This document shows, piece after piece, positions 24,253-26,714 of a stretch of DNA of 27,395 nt. The position numbers were made by a program, and so were the translations under genes. Below the pieces are notes generated by a model that saw only the letters and a program-made list of their open reading frames with translations, was not told the DNA's origin and did no database searches. Position 1 is the first letter of the stretch, and each line of letters starts with the position of its first letter. Origin of the DNA: an uncultured Bacteroidales bacterium (GTDB lineage Bacteria > Bacteroidota > Bacteroidia > Bacteroidales > UBA932); NCBI GenBank assembly GCA_946617545.1, contig CAMOKK010000001.1, positions 1-27,395 on the forward strand, read 5' to 3'.

Positions 24253-24363
24253 CCTTGACAACTAATCGCTTGACTGTGAGTGTGTTATAGAACATTTCTC
24301 GTTCAAATTTTGAACGAGAAATGTTCTATAAACGTATGAGGGACAGCAAGTTAGCTGTCAAGG
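24253..24363. repeat. 111-base nested inverted repeat between convergent genes
   Basis: The core is a perfect palindrome with 23-base arms (24285-24307 and 24309-24331) around T24308, AT-rich, starting TTATAGAACATTTC. Outside it, an imperfect outer stem pairs CCTTGACA (24253-24260) with TGTCAAGG (24356-24363), then CTAA/TTAG, CTTG/CAAG and CTGT/ACAG. Small bulges lie at 24261, 24266-24268 and 24273. On the plus strand the outer stem is followed by GTTTTTA, so it may terminate the aminopeptidase transcript. The size and perfection of the core exceed what a terminator needs; a miniature mobile element or a structured RNA is possible. Confidence 0.75.
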
Positions 24364-24367
24364 GTTT

Positions 24368-25732
24368 TTAGGCGTTCAGCTTATCGGCCGATTCCATGAA
24401 CTTGGCCAGTTCCGCGTCGGTGAGCTTGTAGTCCTGCAGCTCGCCTGAGATGTACTGGTCGTAGGCGCTCATGTCCACGAATCCGTGGCCGGAGAGGTTG
24501 AAGAGGATGGTCTTCTGCTCGCCGGTTTCCTTGCACCTCTGGGCCTCCCGGATGGTGGCGGCAATGGCGTGGCAGCTTTCCGGAGCGGGGATGATGCCCT
24601 CGGTCTGGGCAAAGAGTATGCCGGCCTTGAAGGTTTCGGTCTGCTGCAGGTCGATGGCTTCCATGTAGCCGTCCTTCATGAGCTGGGACAGGATGACGCC
24701 GGCGCCGTGGTAACGCAGACCGCCGGCATGGATGGTGGCGGGTTTGAAGGTGTGGCCCAGGGTAAACATGGGAAGGAGCGGTGTCATGCCTGCCTCATCG
24801 GCAAAGTCATACTCAAATTTGCCACGGGTGAGTTTGGGGCAGCTGGCAGGCTCGGCCGCAATGAAGCGGGTCTTTTTGCCGTCCTGGATGTTGTGACGCA
24901 GGAAGGGGAAGGCAATGCCGGAGAAGTTGGAACCGCCACCGAAGCAGCCGATTACAATGTCGGGATATTCTCCCGCGAGGGCCATCTGCTTCTCCGCCTC
25001 CAGGCCGATAACGGTCTGGTGCATGCACACGTGGTTGAGCACGGAGCCCAGGGTGTACTTACAGTTGGGCGTGGTCAAGGCCAGTTCCATGGCTTCCGAG
25101 ATGGCGCAACCCAGGGAGCCCTGGTCGTTGGGATTCTTGGTAAGGATGTCCTTTCCGGCACGGGTGCTCATGGACGGCGAGGGGGTGATGGCGGCACCGA
25201 AGGTCTGCATGATGGAACGGCGGTAGGGTTTCTGGTTGTAGCTCACTTTCACCATATAGACGGCGCAGTCCAGGCCGAACTTCTTGGCGGCATAGCTGAG
25301 GGCACCGCCCCACTGGCCGGCTCCGGTCTCGGTGGTAATGTTGGTGATGCCCTCCTTCTTGGCATAGTAGGCCTGTGCCAGGGCGGAATTGAGTTTGTGG
25401 CTGCCGGCCGGACTTACGCTCTCATTCTTGAAGTAGATGTGGGCGGGGGTACCCAGGGCCTCTTCCAGCTCGTATGCACGCACCAGCGGGGTGCAACGAT
25501 AGGCCGCGTACTGCTCGCGTACAGGCTCCGGGATGGGAATCCACTCATCGGTCTGGTTCAATTCCTGACGGGCGCACTCTTCCACAAACACCGGGTAGAG
25601 GTCTTCGGGCTTCAGGGGCTCTCTGGTGGCGGGGTTCAGGAAGGGCAGCGGCTTGTTGGGCATCACAGCCTGGATGTTGAAGTAATGGGTGGGAATTTCG
25701 CTCTCGGGGAGGATGTACTTTTTCTGTCTCAT
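24368..25732 (-). CDS. TrpB2-type tryptophan synthase beta chain
   Basis: PLP enzyme of the TrpB-like (TrpB2) group, making tryptophan from indole and serine. The 454 residues are longer than TrpB1 (about 400). The N-terminal extension PTHYFNIQAVMPNKPLPFLN and the insert VKVSYNQKPYRRSIMQTFGA are typical of TrpB2. The PLP lysine is Lys113 in SPAGSHKLNSA. The catalytic glutamate is Glu135 in TTETGAGQWGGAL. The PLP phosphate loop is FGGGSNFSG. No trpA or other trp gene adjoins. TrpB2 proteins generally bind TrpA poorly and are thought to use free indole. The upstream Trp-codon attenuator strongly supports a role in tryptophan supply. The start at 25732 is 38 bases after the leader terminator. 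Confidence 0.93.
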   Translation of the reverse strand: MRQKKYILPESEIPTHYFNIQAVMPNKPLPFLNPATREPLKPEDLYPVFVEECARQELNQTDEWIPIPEPVREQYAAYRCTPLVRAYELEEALGTPAHIYFKNESVSPAGSHKLNSALAQAYYAKKEGITNITTETGAGQWGGALSYAAKKFGLDCAVYMVKVSYNQKPYRRSIMQTFGAAITPSPSMSTRAGKDILTKNPNDQGSLGCAISEAMELALTTPNCKYTLGSVLNHVCMHQTVIGLEAEKQMALAGEYPDIVIGCFGGGSNFSGIAFPFLRHNIQDGKKTRFIAAEPASCPKLTRGKFEYDFADEAGMTPLLPMFTLGHTFKPATIHAGGLRYHGAGVILSQLMKDGYMEAIDLQQTETFKAGILFAQTEGIIPAPESCHAIAATIREAQRCKETGEQKTILFNLSGHGFVDMSAYDQYISGELQDYKLTDAELAKFMESADKLNA

Positions 25733-25770: not shown

Positions 25771-25807
25771 AAAAAAACAGCACACTGTAAGTCAGCGTGC
25801 TGTTTCT
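25771..25807 (-). terminator. Intrinsic terminator of the trp attenuator (3:4 hairpin)
   Basis: In the RNA, AAACAGCAC (25805-25797) pairs perfectly with GUGCUGUUU (25783-25775). A G·U (25796/25784) and a C-G pair (25795/25785) extend the stem over a 9-base loop, and UUUU (25774-25771) continues the U run. It ends 38 bases before the TrpB2 start codon, so termination here would stop expression of the enzyme. Confidence 0.85.
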
Positions 25808-25831
25808 GTCTAATAACCACGGCGAAGCGAC

Positions 25832-25885
25832 TTACAGGTTTGAACTGCAAGTGCGCCACCAGTTGTTATTGTTATTGCGTTTCAT
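25832..25885 (-). CDS. trp leader peptide with tandem Trp codons
   Basis: A 17-residue reading frame, MKRNNNNNWWRTCSSNL, ends in TAA. The two adjacent TGG codons (positions 9-10) are the sensing codons, preceded by five alternating AAT/AAC codons and two basic residues. It lies in the 208-base gap between sdhC and trpB2. Its stop codon is embedded in the antiterminator segment, as expected for a ribosome-mediated attenuator. The peptide itself probably has no function beyond ribosome positioning. No Shine-Dalgarno sequence is seen, and the start is only seven bases after the predicted -7 box, so the leader may be translated from a nearly leaderless transcript. Confidence 0.85.
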   Translation of the reverse strand: MKRNNNNNWWRTCSSNL

Positions 25886-25892
25886 TCTTCTG

Positions 25893-25924
25893 CAAAGATG
25901 GAGAATCGGAATGAAAAATCCAAG
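25893..25924 (-). promoter_or_regulatory. Probable promoter of the trp leader-trpB2 transcript
   Basis: On the minus strand CTTG (25924-25921) is followed after 20 bases by CATCTTTG (25900-25893). This matches TAnnTTTG except for the first base, with normal spacing. The CTTTGCAGAA context is shared with the topA and lipoprotein promoters. It places transcription start within a few bases of the leader ATG. Confidence 0.5.
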
Positions 25925-25940
25925 TAATTTTTCAAAAATT

Positions 25941-26714
25941 TTAGTTGAGCGCGGCAATCTGTTCCAGCAGGGGAGCCGTCCATTGGGCCGATGCCGTTAC
26001 ATAGTGGGCTTCCACATAGGCGTTGACGGCGGTGCACAGGAACAGCAGCACGATGCAGGTGCTCAGGATAACGCCCAGCACACGCAGGCGGGGCAACCAC
26101 TTCTTGTTGTTCCAGCCGATGGTCTGGAACATGCTCCAGAATCCGTGGTTCAGGTGCAGCCAGATGGCCACGAACCATACGATGTACAGGGCCAGGACCC
26201 ACTCGTGACGGAAGGTGTTCACAAGCAGGTAATAAGGGTTCTCCGCCTCTCCGCCCATGAATTCCTGCAGCTGCATCTTGGCCCAGAAGTGGGTGAGGTG
26301 GAAGCAGAGGAACCCGAGGACGACGATACCCAGCACGAACATGTTCTTGGCGCTCCAACTGTCGTTCTTGGCCTTGGAGGACACCTCATAGCGCTTGACG
26401 CCGCCACGGCGCTGGAAGTTTTGTACGCTGAGCCAGATGCCGTAGCAGATGTGGATCAGGAAGCCAAGGGCCAGGATGGGGACCATGATGTCAATCACGG
26501 GAGAGGACATGAAGTCGCAGCCCAGCTGGAACCAGCCGTCTCCGTGGGTGTAGGGGAAGTTGTCGGCCGCCACCTTGCCGAAGTTTCCGTGCATGGAATC
26601 AATGACGGAGAAGAAGTTGATGGTGCCGTGCAGGAGCAAGAAGATGATAAGGAAAGCGCCACTGACGCTTTGGATGAATTTCTTGCCGATGGAAGAGGTT
26701 AGAAAATTAGCCAT
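25941..26714 (-). CDS. sdhC: Succinate dehydrogenase/fumarate reductase diheme cytochrome b subunit
   Basis: Membrane anchor of complex II, passing electrons between the quinone pool and the flavoprotein/Fe-S subunits. The start at 26714 (MANFLTSSIGKKFIQSVSGA) gives 257 residues, the size of the Wolinella-type diheme FrdC. A longer in-frame start at 26804 would run through the promoter. About five membrane helices are visible. Histidines placed to bind two hemes are His29, His88, His139 or His142, and His187 or His190. In this phylum the gene usually precedes sdhA and sdhB, but here the trp leader and trpB2 follow instead, so the catalytic subunits must lie elsewhere. In an anaerobe it would mainly serve fumarate respiration. 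Confidence 0.92.
   Translation of the reverse strand: MANFLTSSIGKKFIQSVSGAFLIIFLLLHGTINFFSVIDSMHGNFGKVAADNFPYTHGDGWFQLGCDFMSSPVIDIMVPILALGFLIHICYGIWLSVQNFQRRGGVKRYEVSSKAKNDSWSAKNMFVLGIVVLGFLCFHLTHFWAKMQLQEFMGGEAENPYYLLVNTFRHEWVLALYIVWFVAIWLHLNHGFWSMFQTIGWNNKKWLPRLRVLGVILSTCIVLLFLCTAVNAYVEAHYVTASAQWTAPLLEQIAALN

What the first reader, a model, noticed from the sequence alone, without database searches (positions are those of the whole stretch)
25771..25885. Complete tryptophan attenuator controlling a stand-alone trpB2 gene
A 17-codon leader with tandem Trp codons is followed by 1:2, 2:3 and 3:4 pairings in the classical arrangement, with the leader stop codon inside segment 2. The 3:4 stem is a U-tailed intrinsic terminator. 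The controlled gene is not a full trp operon but an orphan TrpB2, a paralogue whose role is often uncertain. Trp-specific control links it to tryptophan supply, probably indole salvage. A Bacteroidota 'Bacteroid-trp' leader class is known from memory; what may be new is its use on an isolated trpB2.
Basis: partly seen in the sequence, partly recalled or inferred. Interest (0 to 1): 0.85.

Follow-up and report, generated by a model that had tools for sequence, protein, structure and literature searches.

The report
Tryptophan attenuator on lone trpB2 gene
A gut bacterium that appears to lack the usual genes for making tryptophan from scratch keeps one lone enzyme gene, probably for turning scavenged indole into tryptophan, and most likely controls it with a short RNA switch that reads the cell's tryptophan supply.

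Summary
On the minus strand, 25771-25885 holds a 17-codon leader (MKRNNNNNWWRTCSSNL*), the three competing pairings and a U-tailed terminator, 38 bp before a full-length TrpB2 gene. Relatives support it: a short ORF with a Trp doublet precedes 77 of 118 distinct TrpB2 upstream regions, against 0.9 in shuffles; in 41 aligned leaders the terminator co-varies and the 2:3 helix is 97.8% paired. trpE, trpD, trpC and trpA occur together in only 8 of 61 same-genus genomes, TrpB2 in 51; 36 of these have the leader, 34 of them without the pathway (hand tally). Best reading: classical ribosome-mediated Trp attenuation of an indole-salvage tryptophan synthase. It does not match Rfam Bacteroid-trp (RF01692), though Trp leaders also sit on the genus's trp operons, so I call it a new variant of a known kind. 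In 56 of 77 leaders the promoter's -7 TTTG starts 10-13 nt before the leader AUG, predicting an almost leaderless leader mRNA. No expression data exist, and 15 of 51 TrpB2 genomes lack the leader.

The parts
25921..25923 (-). -33 TTG element of the leader promoter
   Evidence: TTG starts 26-27 bp upstream of the -7 TTTG in 53 of the 56 leaders that have TTTG at -10..-13
25893..25900 (-). -7 element (CATCTTTG; consensus TAnnTTTG), ending 7 nt before the leader ATG
   Evidence: TTTG starts 10-13 nt before an in-frame leader ATG in 56 of 77 leaders; box position -12..-5 from PMC9723704, a Flavobacterium paper (passage)
25888..25888 (-). predicted transcription start, about 3 nt before the leader ATG
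   Evidence: inferred from the -7 box position; not measured
25832..25885 (-). leader ORF MKRNNNNNWWRTCSSNL* (17 codons)
25856..25861 (-). tandem Trp codons UGGUGG
25845..25860 (-). segment 1 (GGUGGCGCACUUGCAG)
   Evidence: 1:2 pairing in the MFE fold; 87.3% of cells paired over 41 leaders
25821..25837 (-). segment 2 (CUGUAAGUCGCUUCGCC), contains the leader stop codon
25785..25793 (-). segment 3 (GACUUACAG): loop and top of the terminator hairpin, pairs with segment 2
   Evidence: 97.8% of cells paired over 41 leaders
25771..25804 (-). intrinsic terminator (12-bp stem, 5-nt loop, U run), 3:4
   Evidence: 10 of 12 pairs show two-sided changes
24368..25732 (-). trpB2, stand-alone TrpB-like PLP enzyme, 454 aa, stop included
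25941..26714 (-). sdhC-like cytochrome b558 gene just upstream; its reading frame ends 55 bp before the leader
   Evidence: TIGR02046 149.5 bits, cut-off 96

Best explanation
This is a ribosome-mediated tryptophan transcription attenuator for a stand-alone TrpB2 that acts as an indole-salvage tryptophan synthase. Transcription starts about 3 nt before the leader AUG. With enough Trp-tRNA the ribosome reaches the UAA inside segment 2, so segment 2 cannot pair with segment 3, the 3:4 terminator forms and trpB2 is off. When Trp-tRNA is short the ribosome stalls on UGGUGG and covers segment 1; 2:3 then forms before the terminator's 3' arm is made, and RNA polymerase reads into trpB2. TrpB2 then joins indole, probably from neighbours, with serine or phosphoserine, into Trp. 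Shown here: the anatomy, its conservation and covariation, and the absence of the de novo pathway from most of the genus. Inferred: the switch itself, Trp as signal, the start site and indole as substrate.
For: WW doublet in short upstream ORFs in 77 of 118 regions against 0.9 in shuffles; the next doublets are S with 50 and N with 44 (NN runs are common in these same leaders). 1:2 plus 3:4 on 41 leaders: 99 cells changed on both sides against 29 in shuffles, 12 pairs with two-sided changes against 8.1 (6 of 500 shuffles as high). The 2:3 helix is 97.8% paired against 15-36% when slid, with 9 two-sided cells against 1.7. The stop codon overlaps segment 2 in 30 of 41 and lies before it in 11. 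In the window, RNA ending at segment 3 folds into 2:3 (-14.7) if a ribosome is placed on the second Trp codon with an assumed 12-nt footprint, but not if free or at the stop. Model R1 hits 19 of 61 genus genomes, one hit each; by coordinates all 19 lie just upstream of a TrpB2 match. trpA, IGPS and trpD pass their cut-offs in the same 8 of 61 genomes, and trpE has its only matches there (392-408 bits, below its curated 518). The motifs SHK, TETGAGQWG and GGGSN are conserved against solved chains 6hul and 4qys (reading of the motifs is mine).
Against: No expression or enzyme data exist. 15 of 51 TrpB2 genomes of the genus lack the leader, 9 or 10 of them without a trp operon. Two operon-bearing genomes (G001, G012) have it. 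R1 missed 17 of the 36 leader-bearing genomes (other subclasses, strict filters). Five of nine 2:3 pairs never vary, and the number of 2:3 pairs with two-sided changes (2) is not above shuffles (220 of 500 as high); pair-type diversity is not either (254 of 500). The alignment rows were picked by TGGTGG and TAAG...TTA motifs, so those columns are invariant by construction. With the whole leader present the terminator is the more stable fold even with a stalled ribosome, so antitermination must be kinetic. The spacer:hairpin duplex beat all 50 shuffles in only 41 of 77 (mean -20.0 against -12.0, automatic hairpin choice). The own genome is only 57% complete.
Confidence: 0.88

Rival explanations
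1. The attenuator is real, but TrpB2's main job is not Trp supply from salvaged indole (for example indole detoxification, serine deamination or use of another indole-like acceptor).
For: TrpB2 activities differ between enzymes (recalled). No genome of 61 reaches the tryptophanase cut-off of TIGR02617; 17 have weaker matches and the own genome has none, so the indole source is not identified.
Against: Control by Trp-tRNA fits a Trp-making enzyme; a detoxifier would hardly be induced by Trp shortage. Of 25 genomes at least 90% complete with at most 5% contamination, 14 have the leader and lack trpE, D, C and A.
Confidence: 0.09
2. The hairpin is only the terminator of the upstream sdhC-like gene, and the short ORF is accidental.
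For: sdhC ends 55 bp upstream; several loci without the leader have sdhC and a plain hairpin before trpB2 (for example L027, L028, L147, L153).
Against: WW leaders 77 of 118 against 0.9 by chance, a conserved promoter before the leader, conserved 1:2 and 2:3 pairing. Leaders also occur at loci where no sdhC match was found in the fetched stretch (for example L011, L015, L018).
Confidence: 0.02
3. It is simply a member of Rfam Bacteroid-trp, already described, with nothing new but the gene downstream.
For: Same phylum, WW leader and terminator. The trp operon leader of G012 (same genus) reaches RF01692 at 49.2 bits, cut-off 49. R1 also finds leaders of trpB1- and trpE-led operons in other Bacteroidales; three of its nine loci outside the genus score 42.6-46.3 bits with RF01692.
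Against: RF01692 does not report this element at E up to 10, nor any of the 7 R1-hit trpB2 leader loci or 4 distant-TrpB2 leader loci given at E up to 1.
Confidence: 0.3

Closest known systems
Bacteroid-trp leader (Rfam RF01692; listed in Table 1 of PMC2864571, passage seen)
   Same: Bacteroidota tryptophan peptide leader; its one match in this genus is a WWW leader on a trpB1-led trp operon (G012)
   Different: The covariance model does not report this element; here it sits on stand-alone trpB2, mostly in genomes without the operon
Trp operon leader (Rfam RF00513; enterobacterial by recall)
   Same: Same 1:2 / 2:3 / 3:4 logic; sub-threshold match of 32.5 bits, 30.0-39.4 bits in four relatives
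   Different: Below the cut-off of 41; segment 3 here is the loop and top of the terminator; different gene and phylum
Attenuator upstream of trpB2A in Corynebacterium diphtheriae (PMC1262725, passages read)
   Same: Predicted classical Trp attenuator before a gene named trpB2
   Different: There trpB2 is with trpA and a trpB1EDGC operon is present; here trpB2 is alone and the pathway is missing from most genomes
Leaderless trpL of Sinorhizobium meliloti (PMC7298713, passages read)
   Same: Leader RNA begins at the trpL start codon
   Different: Alphaproteobacterium, controls trpE(G); here about 3 nt of 5' UTR are predicted, not measured

Membership tests
Ribosome-mediated Trp transcription attenuator (mechanism) | Short leader ORF with regulatory Trp codons | tested here: met
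   WW leader in the window and in 77 of 118 upstream regions; translation itself not shown
Ribosome-mediated Trp transcription attenuator (mechanism) | Mutually exclusive 2:3 antiterminator and 3:4 terminator, conserved | tested here: met
   on the 41 leaders of the window's subclass; 36 of the 77 leaders were not pair-counted
Ribosome-mediated Trp transcription attenuator (mechanism) | Readthrough rises when Trp-tRNA falls | not testable with these tools
   Needs RNA or reporter data
Rfam RF01692 Bacteroid-trp | Score at or above the gathering score of 49 bits | tested here: not met
   No match in the window, none reported at E up to 10 in the region; 1 of 61 genus genomes matches, on its trp operon
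Rfam RF00513 Trp_leader | Score at or above the gathering score of 41 bits | tested here: not met
   32.5 bits; best relative 39.4
TrpB2 (TIGR01415 / NF009057) | Score over curated cut-off, full length | tested here: met
   599.1 and 694.8 bits over residues 13-430 and 2-442
Stand-alone indole-salvage TrpB2 | No TrpA partner and no de novo pathway in the genome | tested here: met
   Own genome: no match for trpA, IGPS, trpD, trpE and one TrpB only, but it is 57% complete; 34 of 36 leader-bearing genus genomes lack all four
Stand-alone indole-salvage TrpB2 | Makes Trp from free indole | not testable with these tools
   Enzyme assay needed

The most novel reading that the evidence does not exclude
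When these gut Bacteroidales lost the trp operon, Trp attenuation passed to the indole-salvage gene trpB2, producing a distinct attenuator family outside the present Rfam models, whose leader mRNA is almost leaderless so that the ribosome loads as soon as the AUG emerges. Many gut bacteria scored as tryptophan auxotrophs would then be regulated indole salvagers.
Probability: 0.5. Interest if true: 0.65.

Novelty: new variant of a known kind. Interest (0 to 1): 0.52.

Why it matters
TrpB2's physiological role is often uncertain (recalled). A Trp-specific attenuator on it, in genomes where the other trp genes were not found, is independent evidence that it feeds Trp supply, and it makes the question testable with one reporter and one enzyme assay. 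A gut survey whose passages I saw (PMC9026213) lists Trp salvage variants only with TrpA and TrpB, so TrpB2-only species may be filed there as plain auxotrophs (my inference). The predicted near-leaderless start would be unusual for the phylum: only about 3.7% of 5' UTRs in B. thetaiotaomicron are under 10 nt (PMC7366714, passage).

Tried and rejected
Plain sdhC terminator plus chance ORF: rejected by conservation. Simple RF01692 membership: tested, not met. A strict rule 'leader only where the trp operon is absent': not exact; 2 of 7 operon genomes with TrpB2 have the leader against 34 of 44 without an operon (Fisher p 0.018; 0.005 if G015, whose trpB1 match ends near a contig end, is counted as operon-bearing). 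The table was tallied by hand and is not corrected for kinship. A single origin of the leader on the TrpB2 tree: not supported, 13 changes needed, at least 7 forced by well-supported branches (quick tree).

Rows dropped: for the 118 regions I left out 5 duplicates (L042, L047, L049, L082, L085), L091 and L151 (too little upstream sequence), the fragment loci L154-L158 (3 of 5 have a leader), and L169 and L170 (both with a leader). For alignment A1, one search took 42 regions by motif and I dropped L077, leaving 41; so 36 of the 77 leaders, among them the CUCCGG-type and ACAACU-type subclasses, went through no pair count. MAFFT shifts segment 1 in L003-L005, so the 1:2 counts are probably too low there. 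For the TTTG count any in-frame ATG of a leader could score. A first upstream listing ignored strand and was redone; a first terminator finder gave leader plus terminator in 60 loci, one of them a GTG ORF (L084) not counted later. One search was given 20 of the 158 loci then in hand. No structure prediction and no search of the large protein database was run.

Full report
What is in the sequence. On the minus strand a 17-codon ORF, MKRNNNNNWWRTCSSNL*, runs from 25885 to 25832. UGGUGG is at 25861-25856. Segment 1 (GGUGGCGCACUUGCAG) pairs with segment 2 (CUGUAAGUCGCUUCGCC); the core of segment 2, CUGUAAGUC, is fully complementary to GACUUACAG at 25793-25785, which is the loop and top of a 12-bp, U-tailed terminator. 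The UAA is inside segment 2. The fold is 5.15 sd below shuffles. trpB2 starts 38 nt after the last U of the terminator; the protein passes TIGR01415 and NF009057 and aligns with the solved chains 6hul and 4qys from about residue 10 to 427 of 454.

More than chance. I took TrpB2 upstream regions from same-genus genomes (30 loci; others by coordinates) and from the 80 best public records (all titled as MAGs or uncultured isolates, many from ruminants). Among 118 distinct regions (drops listed under Tried and rejected) 77 have an ATG ORF of 10-30 codons with a Trp doublet; shuffles give 0.9 and the reverse complements 1. A U-tailed hairpin was found after all 77 (no shuffled control for that). 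On 41 aligned leaders of the window's subclass the terminator has two-sided changes in 10 of 12 pairs; the 1:2 helix is 87.3% paired with mostly one-sided changes; the 2:3 helix is 97.8% paired with two co-varying pairs, a number of pairs not above shuffles although the number of changed cells is (9 against 1.7). Those rows were chosen by motif, so the WW and UAAG columns are invariant by construction. In other subclasses segment 2 and the terminator have changed (CUCCGG types such as L020 and L024; ACAACU...AGUCGU types such as L061 and L070); these were inspected by eye only.

Gene context and pathway. trpA, IGPS and trpD pass their cut-offs in exactly the same 8 of 61 genomes (a ninth has a trpA match below cut-off), and trpE has matches in those 8 only, at 392-408 bits, below its curated cut-off of 518. 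All four searches rang in all 14 control genomes, trpE over its cut-off in 5 of them. TrpB2 is in 51 of 61; two more have only a TrpB1-like gene and 8 have neither. By my tally 36 of the 51 have the leader: 34 without and 2 with the operon; 15 have none. Of the 25 genomes at least 90% complete with at most 5% contamination, 14 have the leader and no de novo pathway. The own genome is 57% complete, so its own lack of the pathway leans on its relatives. In the operon-bearing genomes the trp operon carries its own WW or WWW leader in 7 of 8, and one of these reaches RF01692.

Spread. WWW leaders also precede a second TrpB2 type (53-56% identical to the window's; 4 of 5 loci) and 6 of the 29 public records of 76-80% identity (L092, L094-L121), 5 of the 6 labelled Prevotellaceae or Bacteroidaceae (L097, L100, L105, L109, L117). 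On a quick TrpB2 tree leader presence changes 13 times. In the order, R1 matches 43 of 295 genomes, the own one included; nine loci of other genomes were fetched, all nine show a Trp-doublet leader near the match, and the seven whose downstream gene I extracted read, by eye, as trpB1 or trpE.

How it most likely works. Folding the window's RNA up to segment 3 gives 2:3 (-14.7 kcal/mol) when a ribosome is placed on the second Trp codon with an assumed 12-nt footprint; free or at the stop it does not form. With the full leader the terminator is part of the most stable fold in all four cases tried, so the choice must be kinetic, as in known attenuators (recalled). TrpB2 would then convert scavenged indole to Trp. 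No genome reached the tryptophanase cut-off (0 of 61; 17 have weaker matches), so indole probably comes from neighbours; that is inference.

Promoter. TTTG starts 10-13 nt before a leader ATG in 56 of 77 leaders, and TTG lies 26-27 bp further upstream in 53 of those 56. The TAnnTTTG box spans -12 to -5 in Flavobacterium psychrophilum (PMC9723704, passage), which puts the start 2-5 nt before the AUG. The window's box reads CATCTTTG, without the leading TA. In B. thetaiotaomicron about 3.7% of 5' UTRs are under 10 nt (PMC7366714, passage). The other 21 of 77 lack that spacing; in several of them, inside and outside the window's clade (L058, L061, L068, L070, L075, L083, L087, L097, L100, L105, L117), a TTTG lies 23-36 nt upstream, so the near-leaderless form is not universal. 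A leaderless trpL is known in S. meliloti (PMC7298713, passages).

Known or new. My searches of the held open library listed no paper that, by title, abstract start or the passages I opened, describes a Trp attenuator on a stand-alone trpB2; the nearest is a predicted one before trpB2A in C. diphtheriae (PMC1262725, passages). I opened passages of only some of the listed papers, and subscription papers are largely not held, so this is a limited negative.

Noticed in passing
window about 24255-24365: A roughly 110-bp palindromic element between trpB2 and an aminopeptidase-like gene, with inverted ends TTGACARCTAA/TTAGYTGTCAA and a central palindrome ACATTTCTCGTTCAAA...; the 19-base core pattern hits 10 places in the own genome at up to 1 mismatch (2 of them the two arms in the window), against 0 for the reversed control. 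MITE- or REP-like.
   Followed up: partly
window 25941-26714 (-): A relative of this sdhC-like gene was found in 56 of the loci held, often just upstream of the leader; several loci without the leader have it with only a hairpin before trpB2. The attenuator terminator may double as its terminator.
   Followed up: partly
L137:1360-1670: Two Trp-doublet leaders with hairpins in tandem before a trpE-like gene in another Bacteroidales genome.
   Followed up: no
L167 (G018:C34): A TrpB1-like gene without a WW leader in a genome with no match for trpA, C, D and E.
   Followed up: no
L061, L070 downstream of the attenuator: Long inverted repeats with GGGGACAGACCCC-like arms between attenuator and trpB2.
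   Followed up: no
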